Below, one piece after another: positions 979-10,346 of a stretch of DNA of 10,346 nt. The stretch's first letter is position 1; each line of letters begins with the position of its first letter. The notes under the pieces were generated by a model. That model ran no database searches. It had not been told where the DNA came from and worked only from the letters and a program-made list of their open reading frames with translations. Both the position numbers and the translations under genes were made by a program. This DNA is from Lentisphaeria bacterium (GTDB lineage Bacteria > Verrucomicrobiota > Lentisphaeria > Oligosphaerales > Oligosphaeraceae): the NCBI GenBank assembly GCA_016287975.1, contig JAEEXV010000121.1:1-10346 (forward strand), in the 5' to 3' direction.

Positions 979-1545
979 ATGGCAGAATCGGCATGGTATG
1001 TGATCCAGGTGATGTCGGGGCAGGAGAACCGCGTGCTGGCGCGTCTGAATACGAAGCGCGAGGCGAACCGTGCCGCCGGCATTGACGACGGGGTCGAGGA
1101 GATCCAGATCCCTGTGGATCGCGTGGAGACGCGCCGCAAGAGCGACAGCAAGGTCGTGGTGAAGGAGCGGAAGCGTTTTCCTGGCTACATTCTGATCAAG
1201 GCGAGCCTGTATGACGAGCAGGGGGAGCGCAAGGCGGAGACGTGGGACCTGGTGCGGAACACGGATGGGGTCATCGGGTTCATTGGCGGTGCCTCGCCTG
1301 CGCGGCTTTCGGAGGCGGATGTCGCTAACATGATGAAGATGGAGGCGGAGGGCGCGACGCCGAAGCCGCGGATTCAGTACAAGATTGGCGAGACGGTGCA
1401 GCTCAAGGGCAGCGCGTTCATTGGCTACGAGGGCGTGATTGAGAGCATCGACAATGAGCGGCAGCGTCTGAAGGTCTCCGTGAACATCTTCGGGCGGGCG
1501 ACACCAGTGGAGATCGGCATCGACGAGGTCGAGCGGCCGCAGTAG
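979..1545 (+). CDS. nusG: Transcription termination/antitermination factor NusG
   Basis: This 188-residue protein binds RNA polymerase, promotes processive elongation, and links polymerase to Rho or to ribosomal protein S10. The N-terminal NGN domain (about residues 1-120) begins AWYVIQVMSGQE and contains the RKRFPGYILIK core strand and NTDGVIGFIGG. The C-terminal KOW domain (about 132-188) contains the motif around GSAFIGYEGVIESID and the closing IFGRATPVEIGIDEVE. The start ATG 979 has AGGAG at 965-969, 9 nt upstream; the stop is TAG 1543-1545. Length is normal. It is the last gene of the tuf-rpmG-trnW-secE-nusG block and is followed directly by a strong terminator. The usual downstream partner rplK is absent here. 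Confidence 0.98.
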   Translation: MAESAWYVIQVMSGQENRVLARLNTKREANRAAGIDDGVEEIQIPVDRVETRRKSDSKVVVKERKRFPGYILIKASLYDEQGERKAETWDLVRNTDGVIGFIGGASPARLSEADVANMMKMEAEGATPKPRIQYKIGETVQLKGSAFIGYEGVIESIDNERQRLKVSVNIFGRATPVEIGIDEVERPQ

Positions 1546-1571
1546 ATTTGACAGCGTGCAGTTGTTTTCAG

Positions 1572-1606
1572 AAAAGCCAGATGATGGAAGTCATCTGGCT
1601 TTTTTT
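1572..1606 (+). terminator. Intrinsic terminator after nusG
   Basis: A perfect 10-bp inverted repeat, AGCCAGATGA (1575-1584) and TCATCTGGCT (1591-1600), encloses the 6-nt loop TGGAAG. A T-tract follows at 1600-1606, and A residues precede the stem at 1572-1575, which would extend pairing to the T-tract and allow some function on the opposite strand. It lies 27 bp after the nusG stop. It should end the tuf-nusG transcript and insulate it from the secreted-enzyme genes that follow. Confidence 0.93.
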
Positions 1607-1647
1607 GTGTTCCGTGTGACAGGCAACAAGGATTGGGGTTTACGACG

Positions 1648-4260
1648 ATGAAGCGGATCTGGATGATGGCGTTGGTGGCGTTGGCGCTGTGGGCGAGGTC
1701 GTCGCAGGCGATGCCTTCGGTGGACGGGCAGTCGATGCTGTCGGAGGCGGGATTTTCCTTTGTGATCGAGACGGGGGACAATCCAGTCTCGCGGGAGGTG
1801 TGCTTTCCCGCGGTGGAGCGGAAGACGGGGCACACGGTGTGCCTGGCCTTTCGGATGTATCTGCGCAGCCCCTGGCCAGGCGGCTGGAATCCGCTGACGG
1901 CGTGGGAACTGAACGGCGTGCCGATGAAGAAGACGACGGCGGGGAACCGCTGGCGCCTGCTTGGGCGCGGCGAGGCGATGTTCACCACCCTCAAGGGGAG
2001 CGAGCGCCTGGAGTGGTGGCGCGGCAACCAGTTGATGACGCTGTTCGGGCCAGGCAGCGGCGAGGTGGACAAGCGCATTGCCGCGCCTCGTGAATGCGGG
2101 TATGACTATCTCCTCGACATCTCGGATCTGGTGCACTATGTCGAGCCTGGCGCCGACGGGCGGGTCGAGGCGGCGGTGGAGAATCGGCTGAAGTTGACGA
2201 ACCTGATGCTGAAGCGGTGGGCGCCCAAGGATCGGACGATCGACCTGGTCGTCGAAGGGCTGCGCGTGGTGCAGATGCCAGAGGCGGAGGTCGAGAAGCG
2301 GCGTCCAGCCGAGCAGCCGATTGCCTTTTCGCCGACGAAGGCGGCGGCGCGGCTGGCGTCGGCGGCGGGGAGCGTGACGGTGACGGAGTCGGGCGGCGCG
2401 GTCGTCGAAGTGCAGGGGGAGCGCTACTATCTGGAGAGCGCCTTCTCGTATCCTGCCAGGCCCGCGATGCGCTTCAACCGCCTTGGCGTGGGGGCGGGCG
2501 CTGGCGCGGAGAAGGCCTGGCGTCCGAAAGTGCGGCAGGTGGACGGGGCGACCGCCGAGGTCGTCGCGACGGGGGCGGGATACCGTGTCACGCAACGGCT
2601 GTCGCTCCAGGGGGACGCCCTGTCGATCCAGACGACGGTGAAGAATCTCGGGAAGGATGCGCTGGGGTGCCAGGTGACGCAACTGCTGGGGACGCCTGGG
2701 CTGCTGAAGGCGGGACAGTGGTTCCTGGGCGGGAACGACGACCAGGAGAAGGCCGATGGACTGGGCAGCAATCCGACGGTGATGACGGCGCAGGAGCGCA
2801 GTGCGCTGGGACTGGTCGCGGAGGACGAGGCGACGCGCAACCACATCGTCGCGGAGCGCCGAAACAACACGGTGTCCATGCATGAGCCAAACGTGGGCAT
2901 TCCTGGCGGCGCGGAGGCGACTCTGGAGTATACGCTCTATCTCCTGCCTTCACCCGACTATTTTGCGCTGGTGAATCGGGTGCGGCGCGCGTGGGGCGTG
3001 AACCAGCGCCTCGTCGGGCCGTTCTGCTTCGGCGCGCCGCCTCCAGGGCTGGAGTGCGCGGTCGCGGCGTTGCCGCCGTGGGTCGAGTATGCGTGGAAGC
3101 CAGGGAAACGGCTGACGCGGGAGCAGTATCGCGCGCAGTTGCAGAAGGAGATCGCGGCGCTGCGGAAGTCGCATCCAGGGATCACGCTGCTCGCGATGTG
3201 CGAGTGCAACCTGGTGACGATCGACAAGGGGGACGTCCCAGGCGGGGAGCGGCTGCCGAAGACGGGGAATGTGTGCGAGGGCGTCTACGGCTACCTGATG
3301 AGCCATGAGCAGTCCAGGCTCCTGGCGGCGCACCCGCTGGCGGATTCCATGCTGCGGAGCAAGGACGGGCGGATCTATGTGGATACCTTCTACCCCGCCG
3401 AGCCGTGCCTGGATCTGCAGGTGCAGATTGAAAAGGGCAACGGGCGCTTTCGGCAGGCGATGGAGCAGTTCACCTGGCTCACGACGGAGGTCGGTTTCGA
3501 CGGAATCTACTTCGACCAGTTCGCGCCAGGGTGCAACGGCGGCGTCCACCGCAAGGACCGCTGCTCCTTCGACCGCTGGGACGGGCGCACCGTCATCCTG
3601 GCGCAGGACGGCACCATCGCCGAGAAACTCTACGACTACGCGCTGACGGGGACGTCGGGACGCGTGGAGTTGATCCAAGGGTTGCTGAAACGCGGAAAGT
3701 TCTTCGTGGCGAATACGCAGCCAATCACGAAAGCGACAGCGGTGGCGGGGACGATGCGCTTCATGGAGATGGAAAGCGACAATATCGCGCCGATCCTGGC
3801 CGCGACGGGCAGGCCGCCGCTGTGCCGCCAGGAGCTGATGTGCCAGTTGTCGTGCGCGCCGATCGCGCTGGGCATCCGTCCGCCGCGCTACAGCGCGGAT
3901 CCGAAGGAGCGCGCGCGTCTGCTGCATCGCGCGGTGATCCTGGGGCTGCGGCACGGGGTGGTCTACTATCTCTACAACAAGTGGGTGGATCTCAAGGTGG
4001 GCGGCTACGGGATCATCAGCAAGATGTTCCCGATCACGCCAGTCGAACTGGGGGAGGGCTTTGTGGTCGGCAAGGAGCGCATTCTGACGGCGGTCACGCG
4101 CGGCTTTGTGACTGCCTCGAAGCCGAAGGCGGTGCACGTCTTCGACCCGCATGGACGGGAGCGTCCTGGCGAGGCGGAGACGGTGCAGGTCCCAGGCGGC
4201 TGGCGCACCACGGTGAAACTGGCGGACTGGCAGGAATCCGCCGCGATCATCCTGGAGTAG
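1648..4260 (+). CDS. Large secreted glycoside-hydrolase-like protein (TIM-barrel type), family not assigned
   Basis: The protein has 870 residues from ATG 1648. An in-frame TTG at 1633 only adds MGFTT before the signal peptide, so the ATG is preferred, although its ribosome site is weak (GGGG about 8 nt upstream). MKRIWMMALVALALWARSSQA is a clear signal peptide ending in SQA, so the product is exported. Residues about 25-440 look beta-rich and resemble the N-terminal sandwich of retaining glycosidases, for example YRVTQRLSLQGDALSIQTTV. Residues about 445-780 look like a TIM barrel, with strand ends LLAMCECN (Cys518-Glu519) and VGFDGIYFDQF (615-625), where Asp618 and Asp623 are candidate catalytic or substrate-binding acids. 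A C-terminal beta domain closes the protein. Polysaccharide or glycoside cleavage is inferred from architecture; no GH family is recognised. The next gene starts 3 bp later, implying coupling. The gene contains no CCGG site. Confidence 0.75.
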   Translation: MKRIWMMALVALALWARSSQAMPSVDGQSMLSEAGFSFVIETGDNPVSREVCFPAVERKTGHTVCLAFRMYLRSPWPGGWNPLTAWELNGVPMKKTTAGNRWRLLGRGEAMFTTLKGSERLEWWRGNQLMTLFGPGSGEVDKRIAAPRECGYDYLLDISDLVHYVEPGADGRVEAAVENRLKLTNLMLKRWAPKDRTIDLVVEGLRVVQMPEAEVEKRRPAEQPIAFSPTKAAARLASAAGSVTVTESGGAVVEVQGERYYLESAFSYPARPAMRFNRLGVGAGAGAEKAWRPKVRQVDGATAEVVATGAGYRVTQRLSLQGDALSIQTTVKNLGKDALGCQVTQLLGTPGLLKAGQWFLGGNDDQEKADGLGSNPTVMTAQERSALGLVAEDEATRNHIVAERRNNTVSMHEPNVGIPGGAEATLEYTLYLLPSPDYFALVNRVRRAWGVNQRLVGPFCFGAPPPGLECAVAALPPWVEYAWKPGKRLTREQYRAQLQKEIAALRKSHPGITLLAMCECNLVTIDKGDVPGGERLPKTGNVCEGVYGYLMSHEQSRLLAAHPLADSMLRSKDGRIYVDTFYPAEPCLDLQVQIEKGNGRFRQAMEQFTWLTTEVGFDGIYFDQFAPGCNGGVHRKDRCSFDRWDGRTVILAQDGTIAEKLYDYALTGTSGRVELIQGLLKRGKFFVANTQPITKATAVAGTMRFMEMESDNIAPILAATGRPPLCRQELMCQLSCAPIALGIRPPRYSADPKERARLLHRAVILGLRHGVVYYLYNKWVDLKVGGYGIISKMFPITPVELGEGFVVGKERILTAVTRGFVTASKPKAVHVFDPHGRERPGEAETVQVPGGWRTTVKLADWQESAAIILE

Positions 4261-4263
4261 GCG

Positions 4264-6129
4264 ATGCGACGGGAGCTGCTGGCGATTCTTCTGGGGATGA
4301 TGGCGCTGCATGGGGGCGAAGCGGCGTCGGAGCGCGTCCTCTTCGGGCCGTGGCGCAGTTTCATGAATGCGGACGCGCGGGTGGAGGAACTGGGCAACGC
4401 CTTCGTCTACTACACGCACATCCACCACCGCGGGCGCTACATCGATGAAAAGATCGCGGCGTGCCGACAATCCAACAAGCCTTTTGTGCTGGCGGAGATC
4501 ATTCCGCGAAATCGGCTGCGCCTCCCGCGGGAGAGGATGTACGAGGGGTATGTGGCGCCAGAGCGGATGACGGCGCTCCTGAAGGAGGCAGGGCCGCTTT
4601 ATCTGGGGCGGCTGGTCTGCGGCGAATACGGCGGCATGCTCTTCTGGGCGGAGACCTCGCTGGGGGAAAAACAGGAGTATCCCCGAATGCCGTCGGCGCG
4701 GGATCTGGAGGAGGCACGGAGCCATTACTATGCGGTGCTGAAGGAGTATACCGACAAGGAGCGGTCGCTGGTGCCTGGGCCGCTGATCGGCCTGTGCTCT
4801 GGCAGCAGTTTCCCGCCGCCAGGGATCTTCGACCGCTTTGCGCTGGAGATGATGCCTGGCGATCCAGAGCGCATGGCCCCTGCGGTGCGCGGGGTCTCCC
4901 GCGCCTATGGCACTGGCGACTTCTACACGCTCGTCGCGGCTGGCTGGTATGGCGGGGGGCGCTGGGATCCGCTTTTCCTGAAGCGTTTCCGCGTCGCCCT
5001 CAACTACGCCTATCTCGCAGGTTTCCAGGGGATCTTCGTTGAATCGGGCTTCTCTGGCTTCAAGGGCTACGGCAACCACCTCGCGATCGACGATCCGATG
5101 GTGGTCGAATTCCGCCGCATCATGCGCGAGTTCCGCGGGTTCTGCGAACGCGACCGACGGCCCGCTGGCGGCCCCGAGGCGCCGATGGCCTTCCTGCAGG
5201 GCAATCTGGATGGGTATCCTGGCCTCTGGACGAACTGCGTGTGGGGGCAATATGGCAATCCCGCCTTCTCGGCGGGGGAGCCTGAGCATGGGTGGCGGCT
5301 GATGGGGGAAATCTTTCGGAAGCGCCCCTGGCACGACAATCTCCTGCAAGGGGCGCGGGACGCCTCGGGGCAGCCGCCCTGCGGGATGTATGACCTGGTG
5401 CCCGCCAGCGCTTCCCTGGAGGCGCTGCGGCGCTACCAGTTGCTGGTGGTGCCAGGGTGGAACACCATGACCGACGAACTCTATGCGCGCCTTTGCGAGT
5501 ATGTGCGCGGGGGCGGGACGCTGCTGATGACGCTGGGCCAATTGCGCGTGAACACCCGTCGCGACGAGCCGATGCGCCTCTATCGCGACGGCGATCTGCG
5601 CGAACTCTTCGGCGTGCGCGTCGATGGCTTCGCGGACGCGCCCGTGACTGGCATCAAGTTCTGCCGCGCGGAATCGGGGGCGGGACGCTTCCGCTGGCCA
5701 GACTGGGGGGATGTCTGCGACCCGAAATTCGGCGGCGGCGCATTCCAGGCAGGACGCCTCGTGGAGAACCGCGCGACGGTGCTGGCGAAGAGTTCGCGGC
5801 ACTTTGTGGACAATGCGTCAACCGCATCCGCGCGCCAGCCAGTGCTGCTGGAGCATGCGTTGGGCAAGGGCCACGCGCTGCTGGTCAACGCGGCGTGCTT
5901 CCCGGGGGATCCCGCGATCTTCGACTTCGAGCGCACCTGCCTGGAGACGCTGATGCGCGGCATGCAGCCTGCGGAACTGCCTGTCATCGCCTCGGAGAAA
6001 CTGCGCTACGCCGTCTACGGCAAGGTCGTCTATGTGCTGAACACCGACTTCGACCTGGACGGCACCTTCATCCTCGGCGACCGCAAATACCAAGTCGCGC
6101 CGATGCAGTTGCTCCGAATCGAACGATGA
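4264..6129 (+). CDS. Secreted GH42-like two-domain protein (TIM barrel plus class I amidotransferase-like domain)
   Basis: The protein has 621 residues. ATG 4264 lies 3 bp after the preceding stop, and its ribosome site GGAG (4254-4257) lies in the end of the upstream gene, pointing to translational coupling. MRRELLAILLGMMALHGGEA is a likely signal peptide. Residues about 25-340 look like a TIM barrel. LVCGEYGGM (Glu121) and GFQGIFVESGF (Glu260) are plausible strand-end acids, and the latter resembles GFDGIYFDQF of the upstream protein. From about residue 380, RRYQLLVVPGWNTM and YVRGGGTLLMTLG match the trimerisation or class I glutamine-amidotransferase-like domain of GH42 beta-galactosidases, with no visible catalytic Cys. 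A short beta domain ends the protein. A glycoside-acting enzyme is the best inference; substrate unknown. It is convergent with the isomerase-like gene, 43 bp away. Confidence 0.68.
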   Translation: MRRELLAILLGMMALHGGEAASERVLFGPWRSFMNADARVEELGNAFVYYTHIHHRGRYIDEKIAACRQSNKPFVLAEIIPRNRLRLPRERMYEGYVAPERMTALLKEAGPLYLGRLVCGEYGGMLFWAETSLGEKQEYPRMPSARDLEEARSHYYAVLKEYTDKERSLVPGPLIGLCSGSSFPPPGIFDRFALEMMPGDPERMAPAVRGVSRAYGTGDFYTLVAAGWYGGGRWDPLFLKRFRVALNYAYLAGFQGIFVESGFSGFKGYGNHLAIDDPMVVEFRRIMREFRGFCERDRRPAGGPEAPMAFLQGNLDGYPGLWTNCVWGQYGNPAFSAGEPEHGWRLMGEIFRKRPWHDNLLQGARDASGQPPCGMYDLVPASASLEALRRYQLLVVPGWNTMTDELYARLCEYVRGGGTLLMTLGQLRVNTRRDEPMRLYRDGDLRELFGVRVDGFADAPVTGIKFCRAESGAGRFRWPDWGDVCDPKFGGGAFQAGRLVENRATVLAKSSRHFVDNASTASARQPVLLEHALGKGHALLVNAACFPGDPAIFDFERTCLETLMRGMQPAELPVIASEKLRYAVYGKVVYVLNTDFDLDGTFILGDRKYQVAPMQLLRIER

Positions 6130-6130
6130 T

Positions 6131-6160
6131 GGGGGCGCCGAAGTCGGGCGGGCCCCCCCC
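6131..6160. other. GC-rich stem-loop between convergent genes
   Basis: GGGGGC (6131-6136) can pair with GGCCCCC (6152-6157), with further pairs possible inside (CCG 6138-6140 with CGG 6149-6151, leaving one bulge). It fills most of the 43-bp gap between two genes that end face to face, the place for a shared transcription end. There is no T-tract on either side, so intrinsic termination is uncertain. The eight-C run at 6153-6160 is also a place where sequencing length errors occur, but no coding frame crosses it. Confidence 0.3.
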
Positions 6161-6172
6161 TTGCCATGGCGG

Positions 6173-7531
6173 TCAGTTTTCGACGGCGACAACCTCGATG
6201 CCTAGCCACTTGCAGAAGATCTTGAGGGGCTGGACGACGTCGGCGTGGATGACGGAGTAGTGGTGCTCGAAGCCGCGGTCCATCACGGTGTCGATGACTT
6301 TCTGGGCGGGGGCGTCGAAGCGGACGCGCAGGGGATTCCCGCGCAGGAATGCCTCGGTGTCGACGGCCTCGCCTGGGACGATCAGCATGCGGTTTTTGCC
6401 GTCGGCGTCCGTGTCGAATTTGGCGATGGTGACGCGCCCTGGCTTGAGGGGGAAGTCGCAGGTGAGGCCCTTTTTGTCGCCGCCGTCGACGCGCATGTGC
6501 ATTCGGAAGGTGGTTTCCTTGAAGTCGCGGCAGAGTTTTGTGGGGGCGGCGCCGCAGTGCCAGATGACGCCTGTGTTGTCCTTTTCGTCGAAACTGATGA
6601 GGTCGACGAAGAAGGCGATGCCGCCGTTGGCGAGGTATTCGAGGAGTTTCATGGTGACGGCGCCGTTGACGTCGCCCTCGCAGGAGGTGCCGAGGCCGCA
6701 GTTCGAGAGCATTCCGAGGACGGCGCAGGGGGCGATGCCGAAGATGTCGGAGAGTTCGGGCCAGCAGCGCACCGCGTATCCAGTGAGGCGGTACTTTTTG
6801 GCGACGGCGACGAATGCGCCGAAGAGCCGGGCGGCGAGTTCAAGGTCGTTGTCGCCCACCTGGAAGCAGCTGGCGGCGTTTGCCTGGACGGTCTTGCGGG
6901 CCTCGTCGAGTTCGGGGCCTGCGAGGGCGCGGGCGGTTTCGACGACCTCCAGCAGATCGAGCACCTCCACGGTGGTTCCGAAGTCGCGGCGGAGCTGCAG
7001 TTCATCGAAGTTCGAGGTGTAGAAGCCAGGGACGCGTCCGCCCGCAAGGCCGAGTTTGAGGTCCTTGAGGCCGGCGATGGCGCGGACGGCGGCGACGGGG
7101 GCGGCGAGTTTCGCGGCGGCCTCCTCGGGCAGCGCGAAGGTGAAGCTGTATTGCTTGCGGAGGCGGTTGAGGCCGTGCGCGGCCATGTTGGCGCCGCAGA
7201 AGGAGTTCTGCTCCCACATCTTGCCTGGGCCAGGCACTTCGGGATTGGCGAGCAGCAGGATCGGCACGTTGAGGCGCGAGGCGGCGGCGGGGATCATCGC
7301 GCCTGCGGGGAAGGTGACGAAGTACATGACGACCGCGTCGACGCGCGCGGCCATGAAGGCCTCCGCCTGGCGGATGGAACTCGCCTCGTCGCAGACGAGC
7401 CCGTCGAAGAGGATTTCGGTGTCGGGGAGCGTCCGCAGATTGCCGACGGTCGTCTCGACGATCTTTTCGATTTTGGGGGTGAGCCAGCTGGCTTTGGTGA
7501 AGGCGAAGACGCCGATCTTCAGGTTGCGCAT
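6173..7531 (-). CDS. L-fucose/L-arabinose isomerase-like protein
   Basis: The protein has 452 residues. The preferred start is ATG at 7531-7529, where the family's first strand (MRNLKIGVFAFTKASW) begins and AAAGGGA lies 9 nt upstream. A TTG at 7585 would add 18 low-complexity residues and is unlikely. This superfamily (FucI/AraA fold, COG2407 type) interconverts aldoses and ketoses using a divalent metal. Family-like stretches are LAGGRVPGFYTSNFDE, SCEGDVNGAVT, FVDLISFDEKDN and WHCGAAP. Likely metal ligands are Glu285, Asp310 and a histidine of the C-terminal pair His423/His424; His325 lies in the HCG motif. Members of this group often have unknown sugar specificity, and some are not true isomerases. 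The protein is cytoplasmic, with no signal peptide. It lies 50 bp downstream of the Gfo/Idh/MocA gene on the same strand and probably shares its transcript. Confidence 0.88.
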   Translation of the reverse strand: MRNLKIGVFAFTKASWLTPKIEKIVETTVGNLRTLPDTEILFDGLVCDEASSIRQAEAFMAARVDAVVMYFVTFPAGAMIPAAASRLNVPILLLANPEVPGPGKMWEQNSFCGANMAAHGLNRLRKQYSFTFALPEEAAAKLAAPVAAVRAIAGLKDLKLGLAGGRVPGFYTSNFDELQLRRDFGTTVEVLDLLEVVETARALAGPELDEARKTVQANAASCFQVGDNDLELAARLFGAFVAVAKKYRLTGYAVRCWPELSDIFGIAPCAVLGMLSNCGLGTSCEGDVNGAVTMKLLEYLANGGIAFFVDLISFDEKDNTGVIWHCGAAPTKLCRDFKETTFRMHMRVDGGDKKGLTCDFPLKPGRVTIAKFDTDADGKNRMLIVPGEAVDTEAFLRGNPLRVRFDAPAQKVIDTVMDRGFEHHYSVIHADVVQPLKIFCKWLGIEVVAVEN

Positions 7532-7581
7532 GGATTCGGTTCCCTTTGGGTGGTTGGAGGATGATGGATGAAAACTGCTTT

Positions 7582-8655
7582 TCAAGTGTTTTCTGCGGTC
7601 TTGTGCCCGCGGAAGCCGCTGACGCGGAAGACTTCCTCGGTGACGCGCACGACTTCGGCGGCCTGGTCGAAGGTGACGGGGCAGGGGATGCCGTTCACGA
7701 TCTCGTCGTAGTAGGTGCTCCAGATGCAGGGGAGGTCGTTGGGGGTCTCGTAGATGGAATCCACAAAGGAAAGCTTTTCGTCGAGGTTCCCGTAGGTCAG
7801 CGGGGGATTTTCGGGGTGTGGCGCCAGTCCCCCGCGTGCCAGTTCCGGTTCCAGGTGGCGTACGCGGATCTTGCCGTCGGCGCTGGATTCGCAGACCAGC
7901 GTGCCACGGCTGCCGATGACTTCGATTTCGCGCCCCGGGAGGGCGCTGCAGCCGGCGACCTCGATGTCCGCGAGGCGTCCGTTTTCGGCGGTGAGCAGGA
8001 TCTTGAAGAGGTCGTCGCCCTCGCCGATGCTGACGACGCGCCTGACATCCGCCCAGATCTGCTTGACGGGGGAATCCAGCAACTGGAGCGCCTGGTCGAT
8101 GAGATGGGGGCCCCAGTTGGTGAGCAGCCCGCCGTAGAACTCGGGCATCGTCATCCAGTCATTGCGGCGGCAGAATCCGACGCAGCGGTGGAGCTTGATG
8201 TACTGCGCCTGGCCAATCAGGCCGCTTTGGAGGAGCTGCCAGGTTTTGTGGAAGGCGGGCTCGAAGCGCCGGTTGTGTCGGAAGAAAAGCTGGTGTGGAT
8301 GCGATTGGGCGGCCTGACGCAATAGTTCCATCTCGGCGACGCTGGTGGCGACAGGCTTTTCCACCACCGCGATCTTGCCTGCGGCGAGAATCTGAAGCGC
8401 CATGGGGACGTGGTCGGGGTGGCGGGTGGCGATGGTCACCATCTCCACTTCTGGATCCTGGAGCATCTCCGCGAGAGACGCGTAGGCGCGGGCGTCGCGG
8501 GCGCCTTTCGGCAAGTCGAGGAGGCGTTCTGGGGCGGTGTCCGCCACGGCGACAATCTGGAAGCGACTGGGGAGGGCGGAGAGTTCCTGCACATGGCCGA
8601 AACGACCGATGCGGCCCAGGCCGCAGATGCCGACTTTGATGATTCGCTGCTGCAT
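7582..8655 (-). CDS. Gfo/Idh/MocA-family NAD(P)-dependent oxidoreductase
   Basis: The protein has 357 residues, normal for the family, starting at ATG 8655-8653 and ending at TGA 7584-7582. The N-terminal Rossmann fold shows GLGRIG (Gly12-x-Gly14-x-x-Gly17), Asp39 at the end of strand 2 as the likely NAD-preferring acid, and the hallmark EKP at Glu99-Lys100-Pro101. The C-terminal alpha/beta domain carries GGLLTNWGPHLIDQAL, with His184 and Asp187 at the usual catalytic positions. These enzymes oxidise or reduce sugars, inositols or sugar acids in the cytoplasm; the substrate cannot be read from sequence. It is the first gene of a minus-strand unit with the isomerase-like gene and diverges from the AraC regulator. 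No Shine-Dalgarno sequence is visible upstream (CATTCTCCAAACG before ATG), so initiation may depend on other features. Confidence 0.93.
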   Translation of the reverse strand: MQQRIIKVGICGLGRIGRFGHVQELSALPSRFQIVAVADTAPERLLDLPKGARDARAYASLAEMLQDPEVEMVTIATRHPDHVPMALQILAAGKIAVVEKPVATSVAEMELLRQAAQSHPHQLFFRHNRRFEPAFHKTWQLLQSGLIGQAQYIKLHRCVGFCRRNDWMTMPEFYGGLLTNWGPHLIDQALQLLDSPVKQIWADVRRVVSIGEGDDLFKILLTAENGRLADIEVAGCSALPGREIEVIGSRGTLVCESSADGKIRVRHLEPELARGGLAPHPENPPLTYGNLDEKLSFVDSIYETPNDLPCIWSTYYDEIVNGIPCPVTFDQAAEVVRVTEEVFRVSGFRGHKTAENT

Positions 8656-8691
8656 CGTTTGGAGAATGGCTTATTTGTGAAGCACGCTGGT

Positions 8692-8725
8692 GTCCAGTTT
8701 GCTGAGCAGATGGACGTTTTGCAGA
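8692..8725. promoter_or_regulatory. Repeat cluster, possible regulator binding site
   Basis: GTCCA (8692-8696) and TGGAC (8711-8715) form an inverted repeat around the near-palindrome TGCTGAGCA (8700-8708). In addition, TTTGCTGA (8698-8705) and TTTGCAGA (8718-8725) are direct repeats differing at one base, with starts 20 bp apart, about two helical turns. AraC-family regulators commonly bind direct-repeat half-sites with about this spacing. The cluster overlaps the -35 of the regulator promoter and lies just downstream of the -10 of the oxidoreductase promoter, so a bound protein could affect both. Binding is inferred. Confidence 0.35.
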
Positions 8726-8738
8726 AATCGTATATAAT
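8711..8738 (+). promoter_or_regulatory. Promoter for the AraC regulator unit
   Basis: A perfect -10 hexamer TATAAT (8733-8738) lies in a short AT-rich island in otherwise GC-rich DNA. TGGACG (8711-8716, 4 of 6 matches to TTGACA) is 16 bp upstream. Transcription would start near 8744-8746, leaving only about 12 nt before the small upstream reading frame at 8757. A weak -35 together with the repeats around it would suit a regulated promoter. Confidence 0.6.
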
Positions 8739-8763
8739 ATAAAAGGGGTCAAACGCATGGCAA
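8736..8763 (-). promoter_or_regulatory. Divergent promoter for the Gfo/Idh/MocA-isomerase unit
   Basis: On the minus strand, TTGCCA (8763-8758, 5 of 6 matches to TTGACA) is followed after 16 bp by TATATT (8741-8736), 5 of 6 matches to TATAAT. The start point would be near 8729, giving a leader of about 70 nt before the ATG at 8655. Its -10 overlaps the -10 of the opposite promoter, so the two polymerases would compete for one AT-rich box. Confidence 0.5.
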
Positions 8764-8807
8764 GCCTTTGGATTTGTCATTTTCGCACTGGAATTTGCAC
8801 AAAATGA
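8757..8807 (+). CDS. 16-codon upstream reading frame coupled to the AraC gene
   Basis: ATG 8757 is preceded by AAGGGG (8743-8748) with 8-nt spacing, the best ribosome-binding site in this intergenic region. It encodes MASLWICHFRTGICTK and stops at TGA 8805-8807. The stop overlaps the regulator's ATG (8804-8806) as ATGA. The regulator's own start has only a poor Shine-Dalgarno (TGGA, 11 nt away), so ribosomes ending here may be needed to start it. The peptide has no recognised family; two Cys and one Trp are notable. It could be a coupling device, a regulatory leader peptide or chance. Confidence 0.5.
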   Translation: MASLWICHFRTGICTK

Positions 8808-9613
8808 ACTTCTTTGACGGACAGGATTTCGTGGCCGGGGGGCTGGAGCCGGAGGCGCACGGAATGTTTCGGGCCACGGCAATCTACTATGGCGTGCAGT
8901 ACAACCATTGCGGACGGTTCTCCCTCCGCGTGGACCACGGTCCCGTCCACACGGCGGAAGGCCCGCATGCCTTCTTCACGGTGCCTGGCCACTATTATGA
9001 ATACGGCTGTGGCGATGACCAGACGCGCTCCCACAATTTCATCTGTTCATTGGGGCCGCGGTGTCGTCGCTACCTTGAGACGGGACTGTTCCAGGCGACG
9101 CGGAGTTCGCCATTGATTCCAGTGCGCAACCCCGAGCGTTTTCTGGCGACCTTGCGGGAGCTGGTCACCCTGAGCCGCAGGGTGGTCCCCGCCACGCCCC
9201 GAATGGTGCTGCTCTACGAGGATCTGCTGCTGCAGCTCCATGAGTCGGAGCAGGTGGTCGGCCGCGTCCCGGTTTGGCAGGAGGAGTTCATCAAGCGGCT
9301 GATGGCCGACATCGCGTCCGCGCCAGAACGGCCCTGGGACTTCGCGGCGCAGGCGGCGAAGGTTCATGTCACCCAGACGCATTTTCGGCGAGGCTTCAAA
9401 GCCGTGGCGGGGACGCCTCCCCAGCAATTCCTGATCCATCAGCGCCTGCGGCTGGCCTCGCAGCTGCTTTTGGAGATGCCGCCACGCTCGATCAAGGAAA
9501 TCGGCGAGAGCTGCGGCATCGGGAACCAGCAATACTTCTCCCGTCTTTTTCGGCACCATTTCCACGTGTCTCCGCTGGAGTTTCGGCGCTCGATGACGGG
9601 GCGGCGGCCTTGA
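8804..9613 (+). CDS. AraC-family transcriptional regulator (cupin plus double helix-turn-helix)
   Basis: The protein has 269 residues from ATG 8804. An in-frame TTG at 8768 would add 12 residues but has no ribosome site. The N-terminal half (about residues 5-110) is a beta-rich cupin-like effector domain, with HTAEGPHAFFTVPGHYYEYG as the clearest part; such domains usually sense a sugar or related ligand. The C-terminal half is a typical AraC DNA-binding domain. The first helix-turn-helix is near residues 180-201 (FAAQAAKVHVTQTHFRRGFK), and the second spans about 229-257 (SIKEIGESCGIGNQQYFSRLF), followed by the family's closing HFHVSPLEFRRSM. It diverges from the oxidoreductase-isomerase unit and most likely controls it, and perhaps itself. 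Start is probably by coupling to the overlapping 16-codon frame. Confidence 0.92.
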   Translation: MNFFDGQDFVAGGLEPEAHGMFRATAIYYGVQYNHCGRFSLRVDHGPVHTAEGPHAFFTVPGHYYEYGCGDDQTRSHNFICSLGPRCRRYLETGLFQATRSSPLIPVRNPERFLATLRELVTLSRRVVPATPRMVLLYEDLLLQLHESEQVVGRVPVWQEEFIKRLMADIASAPERPWDFAAQAAKVHVTQTHFRRGFKAVAGTPPQQFLIHQRLRLASQLLLEMPPRSIKEIGESCGIGNQQYFSRLFRHHFHVSPLEFRRSMTGRRP

Positions 9614-9864: not shown

Positions 9865-10346
9865 ATGACACTTCAGCCTATCGCCATTGATTCAGGGAAC
9901 TTCCCCGAACTCCGAAAGAACAAGTGCGTCTATGTGGACAAGACCGCCTATTTCCATCGGCTCATCACGAATCCTGGCGCGCGGCGCTTCTTCCTGGCGC
10001 GTCCCAGGCGCTTCGGCAAGTCGCTGATGATCTCGACGCTGAAGGCGCTTTTCGAGGGGCGCCGCGAGCTCTTCGACGGGCTGGCCATCACGCGGACCGA
10101 CTGGAAATGGGAGAAGTGGCCGGTGATATACTTCAACTTCGGCTTTGCTGCGTCATCCGCGTCGGCGGCGCAGACCAGGAGGGACTTCCGGGACGCCGTG
10201 GGGAGCGCCCTGACGGAGGCTGGGGCGGCGTATTCACGGCGGAAGTCCCCTGCAAGCAACTTCGGGTGCGCCATCGACGCGCTGTCGGCCGCGAACAAGG
10301 GCAGAGGCGTGGTCATCCTGATCGACGAATACGACGACCCCGTGGC
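9865..10346 (+). CDS. AAA-ATPase-like family protein, N-terminal part (runs off the window)
   Basis: ATG 9865 follows AGGAG (9854-9858) with 6-nt spacing, and the frame stays open for 160 codons to the window end. The N-terminus reads LQPIAIDSGNFPELRKNK, then VYVDKT (residues 22-27), then the Walker-A-like ARPRRFGKSL (residues 45-54). FEGRRELFDGLAI and a Walker-B-like VVILIDEYDDPV (about residues 150-160) follow. This is the AAA-ATPase-like (PF09820-type) domain, usually followed by a PD-(D/E)XK nuclease-like domain in proteins of about 500-560 aa. The family expands to many copies in some Bacteroidota and Lentisphaerota. Its biological role is not established; links to mobile DNA or defence are guesses. 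The remnant directly upstream is from the same family. Confidence 0.9.
   Translation, partial: MTLQPIAIDSGNFPELRKNKCVYVDKTAYFHRLITNPGARRFFLARPRRFGKSLMISTLKALFEGRRELFDGLAITRTDWKWEKWPVIYFNFGFAASSASAAQTRRDFRDAVGSALTEAGAAYSRRKSPASNFGCAIDALSAANKGRGVVILIDEYDDPV

What the first reader, a model, noticed from the sequence alone, without database searches (positions are those of the whole stretch)
1546..6129. Near-absence of CCGG across two 64%-GC-type genes
Reading every line, I found only one CCGG (5902-5905, inside CCCGGG) between 1546 and 6129. Independent bases at this composition would give about 45 in the two genes. The whole window has 17, against about 100 expected. Codon choice appears to follow this. 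Pro, Ala, Thr and Ser codons before a G-starting codon are often CCA/CCT, GCT/GCA, ACT or TCT (for example ACT-GGC at 4912, TCT-GGC at 4798), while CCG or GCC is used before other bases. The replacements CCTGG and CCAGG are what deamination of a methylated inner cytosine in CCGG would leave. This suggests a long-standing CCGG methyltransferase or restriction pressure in the lineage.
Basis: partly seen in the sequence, partly recalled or inferred. Interest (0 to 1): 0.72.

Follow-up and report, generated by a model that had tools for sequence, protein, structure and literature searches.

The report
Bacterial genes that avoid CCGG
A stretch of DNA from an unnamed, Lentisphaeria-like bacterium has lost almost all copies of the four-letter word CCGG through silent codon changes, most likely because a restriction enzyme cutting CCGG is, or recently was, in its lineage; this is a clear example of a known effect.

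Summary
CCGG occurs once in 1546-6129 and 17 times in the window; a maximal-order Markov model expects 29 and 69; synonymous codon shuffling expects 38 in the two genes and 65 in the six main genes, against 1 and 11 found. By codon-shuffle z it is the most depleted tetranucleotide, in all three frames (5/24, 4/21, 2/20). Frame and codon tests speak against deamination of one methylated cytosine as sole cause and for selection against the site. No genome is held for the window. Its five nearest held relatives have CCGG at 0.84-0.98 of expectation. In a partial survey of the class, only the window and G048 of 121 entries fell below 0.3, apart on a NusG tree. G046, not in that survey, carries an HpaII-type endonuclease and a methylase on a contig whose other genes hold 1 CCGG of 30 expected, but three other carriers are not depleted. 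G002 almost lacks GCGC and has an M.HhaI-like methylase. Best reading: Type II restriction-site avoidance, a known kind; the window's own system is unseen.

The parts
1546..6129 (.). Stretch with a single CCGG (51 expected from base composition, 28.7 from a Markov model)
1633..4260 (+). ORF of 875 aa from a TTG (an ATG lies at 1648), no Pfam or NCBIfam match; 0 CCGG against 20 expected under codon shuffling
   Evidence: a 99%-identical protein and a 56% one exist in ENA contigs
4264..6129 (+). ORF of 621 aa with a beta-galactosidase trimerisation domain (PF08532); 1 CCGG against 18 expected
   Evidence: of five related loci, three at 51-53% are in two Lentisphaeria/Lentisphaerae MAGs, two at 32-33% in Clostridiales and Oscillospiraceae MAGs
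5902..5905 (.). The only CCGG in 1546-6129, inside CCCGGG
979..1545 (+). nusG; 1 CCGG against 3.6 expected; used to place the window
6173..7585 (-). Fucose-isomerase-C-domain protein (PF02952), distantly like sulfoquinovose isomerase; 2 CCGG against 10 expected
7582..8655 (-). Gfo/Idh/MocA oxidoreductase; 4 CCGG against 5 expected (not depleted under codon shuffling)
8768..9613 (+). AraC-family regulator; 3 CCGG against 8 expected

Best explanation
The window shows recognition-site avoidance. The bacterium's genome has, or until recently had, a Type II restriction-modification system cutting CCGG (an HpaII- or MspI-like pair is the natural candidate). Cuts at transiently unmethylated sites are costly, so variants that lose a CCGG by a silent change are kept, whichever base changes. 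Shown: strong, all-frame, synonymous depletion of CCGG; its near-absence from the nearest held relatives; the same depletion elsewhere in the class, and in one genome an HpaII-type endonuclease with a methylase on a CCGG-poor contig. Inferred: that a CCGG endonuclease is or was in the window's own genome, and that cutting rather than another cost of the site drives the selection.
For: CCGG is the most depleted tetranucleotide by codon-shuffle z over six genes (11/65, z -10.4), and the next three are also palindromes. All three frames are depleted, none of 1000 shuffles reaching the observed value in any frame. Pro is CCG before G in 1 of 41 cases and before A/C/T in 38 of 50 in the two genes; Arg CGG after C is 2 of 61 against 59 of 156 in six genes. 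Gly/Arg and Val/Leu codons before G do not shift to A/T-ending codons in the same way, so this is not a general rule for codons before G. Lineage-restricted: 0.84-0.98 in the five nearest held genomes; below 0.3 in 2 of 121 entries surveyed. G046 has an HpaII-type endonuclease (305 bits) beside a C5 methylase, and the other ORFs on that contig have 1 CCGG against 29.6 expected. Calibration, one case tested: G002 has GCGC at 2/47, and the only C5 methylase found in it matches M.HhaI (GCGC, specificity recalled) over its whole length, target-recognition region included, 527 bits. Site avoidance by such systems, also after their loss, is described in PMC4687349 (abstract, section 20, first part of 21, and passages).
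Against: No restriction-modification gene was found among the window ORFs scanned, and no genome is held for it. Having the HpaII-type enzyme is not enough: of 4 carriers among 197 genomes, G050 (53/63), G078 (10/13) and G105 (111/104) are not depleted in the stretches read, and one short contig binned with G046 is not either (10/11.9). The most depleted genome of the survey, G048, shows no HpaII-type endonuclease, only two C5 methylases of unknown specificity. G002 also nearly lacks ACGT (3/36), which its M.HhaI-like enzyme does not explain. The Gfo/Idh gene in the window is not depleted under codon shuffling (4/5). The deamination-type products CTGG and CCAG are raised too.
Confidence: 0.75

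Rival explanations
1. CCGG is methylated (by a lone or paired methylase) and decays by deamination of 5-methylcytosine to CTGG/CCAG, with no restriction needed.
For: CTGG (105/79, z about 5) and CCAG (66/55, z 2.2) are raised over six genes; CCA is the commonest single replacement of CCG before G in the two genes (18 of 41).
Against: Inner-C deamination is silent only in frames 0 and 1, outer-C deamination only in frame 2, yet all three frames are depleted alike (5/24, 4/21, 2/20). In the two genes CAGG in frame 1 (13/5.2) and, more weakly, CCT-G (12/7.8) and CCC-G (10/7.0, z 1.7) in frame 0, which deamination does not produce directly, are also raised (CCTG over all frames is not: frame 2 is 25/35), and before CGG the preceding C is exchanged for T, A or G (TCGG 7/3.4, ACGG 6/2.6, GCGG 25/20). 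Deamination may add to selection.
Confidence: 0.1
2. A general aversion to short palindromes, or a codon-pair habit of this family, with CCGG as its extreme member.
For: GGCC, AGCT, GTAC and ACGT are also below expectation in the window, and all four lie below it in the five nearest relatives (0.25-0.84).
Against: Those relatives share that background but not the CCGG depletion (0.84-0.98), and GCGC and CGCG are not depleted in the window. In the class, different genomes nearly lack different palindromes (GCGC 0.04, ACGT 0.03, GTAC 0.04, CCGG 0.09), which a shared habit would not give.
Confidence: 0.08
3. The sites are, or were, recognised by another CCGG-dependent system, such as a methylase acting on gene expression or a modification-dependent nuclease, and selection acts against methylation rather than cutting.
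For: Rusinov and colleagues suggest that selection may act against sites whose methylation is unfavourable (PMC4687349, section 21, first part).
Against: The same paper reports avoidance for Type II systems with separate endonuclease and methylase and, in the vast majority of cases, not for other types (abstract and section 21, first part). Sequence alone cannot separate these costs.
Confidence: 0.05

Closest known systems
Recognition-site avoidance of orthodox Type II restriction-modification systems (Rusinov et al. 2015, PMC4687349)
   Same: A palindromic 4-mer far below Markov and codon-shuffle expectation, in some lineages and not in their relatives.
   Different: The cognate system is not seen, because no genome is held for the window. 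The Markov ratios here (0.03 and 0.24) are far beyond that paper's threshold of 0.78, though it used a different expectation model and whole genomes.
HpaII-type system (RE_HpaII, PF09561, with a C5 methylase) in G046 of the same class
   Same: Targets CCGG (specificity recalled); its contig is nearly free of CCGG.
   Different: Found in another genome of the class; no match in the window's five nearest held relatives.
M.HhaI-like methylase and GCGC avoidance in G002
   Same: Near-absence of one 4-mer in one genome of the class.
   Different: Different site (GCGC); here the methylase is visible and matches M.HhaI over its whole length.
CCGG over-representation in Helicobacter (PMC4687349, section 20)
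   Same: CCGG frequency departs strongly from expectation in a lineage with CCGG systems.
   Different: Opposite sign: there CCGG is over-represented and the authors give no explanation.

Membership tests
Type II restriction-site avoidance | Site well below Markov expectation | tested here: met
   1/28.7 and 17/69.4
Type II restriction-site avoidance | Depletion persists when amino acids and codon usage are held fixed | tested here: met
   1/38 and 11/65, 0 of 500 shuffles as low; one of the six genes (Gfo/Idh, 4/5) is not depleted on its own
Type II restriction-site avoidance | Site removed in every reading frame by whatever silent change is open | tested here: met
   5/24, 4/21, 2/20 by frame; codon tests
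Type II restriction-site avoidance | Depletion restricted to particular lineages | tested here: met
   0.84-0.98 in the five nearest genomes; 2 of 121 entries below 0.3; two separate changes on the NusG tree
Type II restriction-site avoidance | Cognate endonuclease and methylase in the same genome, or traces of them | not testable with these tools
   No genome held for the window; none among the window ORFs scanned
Type II restriction-site avoidance | Depletion genome-wide | tested here: inconclusive
   Depleted over the window (17/69.4), but only 10.3 kb is available and one gene is not depleted
Deamination footprint of a CCGG C5 methylase | Losses only in frames where C-to-T or G-to-A is silent, with only those products raised | tested here: not met
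   All frames depleted; CAGG in frame 1 raised as much as CTGG
Deamination footprint of a CCGG C5 methylase | CCGG methylated in the cell | not testable with these tools
   Needs bisulfite or nanopore data

The most novel reading that the evidence does not exclude
In class Lentisphaeria many lineages have nearly erased a short palindrome, and not the same one (CCGG, GCGC, ACGT, GTAC, AGCT or GGCC), so that the erased word is a fossil record of a past or present restriction system, readable from a single 10 kb fragment without the system itself; CCGG was erased at least twice independently.
Probability: 0.5. Interest if true: 0.4.

Novelty: new member of a known kind. Interest (0 to 1): 0.3.

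Why it matters
It suggests that a single metagenome-sized fragment can carry a readable trace of a restriction system that is not on the fragment, and the frame-by-frame test helps to separate selection against a site from decay of a methylated base. For Lentisphaeria it suggests which methylation to look for. The principle is already known.

Tried and rejected
Own genome: not held, so genome-wide counts and a search for its methylases were impossible. Plasmid records gave no match to the 621-aa protein. The protein search with the 875-aa ORF found 2 proteins (99% and 56% identical) in ENA contigs of at most 4.3 and 12.9 kb, which I had no tool to read.

G048 (CCGG 6/66) was first thought to show its CCGG enzyme on contig C44, where a C5 methylase overlaps a 336-aa ORF. 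That ORF has no Pfam or NCBIfam match; its only PDB sequence matches were two ribosomal-protein sequences (E 0.0007 and 0.003); relatives of it are named restriction endonuclease or hypothetical protein by sources, without a site; its model is of low confidence (pLDDT 68), with EcoRV-like best Foldseek hits, none with E below 0.001. Its specificity stays unknown. The same contig is in the G042 bin at 99.97% over 2944 bases, with a recA besides G042's own, so it is probably misbinned there; G048 itself shows three recA matches. An MspI-type endonuclease (PF09208) gave nothing in 9 genomes, but the control rang nowhere either, so this is no evidence of absence. A 34-residue stretch in G047 that resembles the G046 methylase, with a stop inside, could be a remnant but lies near the conserved start of C5 methylases and was not pursued.

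The survey used a greedy longest-ORF caller. In the window the longest ORF is a 950-aa antisense one, so the survey gives 15/70 there instead of 11/65; similar miscalls in other G+C-rich genomes are possible. The survey covers 127 of 197 genomes plus the window; 121 entries had at least 15 CCGG expected. G001 and G002 were read through the loci, G041-G044 and G056 through NusG and other contigs, the rest around nusG. G046 and G105 were read later and only on contigs chosen for their methylase or endonuclease genes.

Papers: the searches (4 papers; 0; 3; 15, of which 10 listed; 1) showed in their listings no study of CCGG avoidance in Lentisphaeria; only PMC4687349 was opened (abstract, sections 20 and 21 part 1, and passages).

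Full report
What was checked. CCGG was counted in the window and compared with independent bases, a maximal-order Markov model and synonymous codon shuffling within each gene, which fixes protein and codon usage. One CCGG lies in 1546-6129 and 17 in the window. Expectations are 51 and 104 (bases), 28.7 and 69.4 (Markov), and 38.2 for the two genes by codon shuffling (0 of 500 shuffles as low). For six genes the count is 11 against 65, z -10.4, the lowest z of the tetranucleotides with at least 4 expected. By Markov ratio a few A+T-rich words with small expectations are lower.

How the sites were lost. In six genes, frames 0, 1 and 2 have 5/24.3, 4/20.8 and 2/19.7 (0 of 1000 shuffles as low in each). 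In the two genes Pro is CCG before G in 1 of 41 cases and before other bases in 38 of 50; codons xCN (Ala, Pro, Thr, Ser) before GG end in C in 0 of 48 cases, against 28 of 102 before GA, GC or GT; over six genes Arg CGN is CGG in 2 of 61 cases after C, against 59 of 156 otherwise; C/T-ending codons before CGG end in T in 11 of 13 cases, against 10 of 69 before other CGN. Gly/Arg and Val/Leu codons before G do not show this shift.

What this says about mechanism. Deamination of the inner methylcytosine is silent in frames 0 and 1 but changes Arg CGG to Trp or Gln in frame 2; deamination of the outer one is silent only in frame 2 (genetic code). Either alone should leave sites standing in some frame; none is left at normal level. 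Replacements include a transversion, CAGG in frame 1 (13/5.2 in the two genes), as strong as CTGG (14/4.7). Against this, CTGG and CCAG, the deamination products, are raised as well. Selection against the site itself fits best; deamination may add to it.

Where the window comes from. The window starts with the end of tuf, then rpmG, tRNA-Trp, secE and nusG. No genome is held. Three of five loci related to the 621-aa protein are in Lentisphaeria/Lentisphaerae MAGs (51-53%), two in Clostridiales and Oscillospiraceae MAGs (32-33%). Of 197 genomes of that class, 161 have a NusG match; the best five, G041-G044 and G056, are 50-59% identical (60% at most). The NusG tree of 125 genomes plus the window nests it with G041-G044 (support 100/93) and next to G056 (100/98); its end branch is long and the bootstrap had not settled.

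How rare it is. In G041-G044 CCGG stands at 0.94, 0.89, 0.84 and 0.88 of expectation and in G056 at 0.98, in 28 to 80 kb each. Among 121 entries with at least 15 expected sites (120 genomes and the window), only G048 (6/66) and the window fall below 0.3; the median is 1.18. They lie apart on the tree and need two changes. G046 was outside that survey and, read later, would join them (12/44.5 over two contigs); short recA loci of G047 (2 against 11.7) and G048 (0 against 13.4) are also low by a Markov count. Other genomes nearly lack other palindromes: GCGC in G002 (2/47), ACGT in G063 (1/30) and G002 (3/36), GTAC in G069 (1/27), AGCT in G176 (8/55), GGCC in G140 (2/16).

Links to restriction systems. 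The only C5 methylase found in G002 matches M.HhaI over its whole length, 527 bits; M.HhaI recognises GCGC (recalled). This match between lost word and enzyme was tested in this one genome only, and G002's lack of ACGT is not explained by it. The HpaII-type endonuclease family occurs in 4 of 197 genomes. In G046 it sits beside a C5 methylase, and the other ORFs of that 13.7-kb contig have 1 CCGG against 29.6 expected; its recA locus has 0 against 5.5 by Markov; a second contig, 4.6 kb, has 10 against 11.9. The other three carriers are not depleted where read: G050 53/63, G078 10/12.8, G105 111/104. G048 and the window's five nearest relatives gave no match to that endonuclease.

Comparison with what is known. 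Rusinov et al. (PMC4687349; abstract, sections 20 and 21 part 1, passages) report avoidance for about half of 1774 site-genome cases of orthodox Type II systems, less often for recently gained ones, and avoidance without the system as a possible trace of a lost one. The window, G046 and G048 fit that picture, and so do carriers without avoidance. By kind this is not new.

Verdict. A real, strong and locally unusual signal with an ordinary explanation: avoidance of a Type II restriction site. The cognate system in this species remains to be found.

Noticed in passing
window 979-1633: The gene after nusG here is not rplK, whereas rplK lies just downstream of nusG in G041, G042, G044, G056 and G048. 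The two CCGG-poorest genes begin right after this break in gene order.
   Followed up: partly
window 979-9613: Third codon positions favour G on the + strand whichever way a gene points (+ strand GC3 skew 0.04 to 0.55 in six genes), as expected of a leading strand.
   Followed up: no
window 6173-7585: The isomerase-like protein matches the sulfoquinovose isomerase model SftI at 229 bits, far below its cut-off of 700; with the Gfo/Idh, AraC and beta-galactosidase-domain genes it may form a sugar-use cluster.
   Followed up: no
window 9865-10344: A partial AAA-ATPase_like protein (PF09820) lies at the window's end.
   Followed up: no
L214 and L218: The same contig piece with R-M genes and recA is in two genome bins (G048, G042) at 99.97% over 2944 bases, probably a binning error in G042, which has its own recA.
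   Followed up: partly
L001, L003, L002: In these Lentisphaeria loci CCGG is over-represented (G001 365/239, G002 126/97) while GGCC and ACGT are scarce.
   Followed up: no
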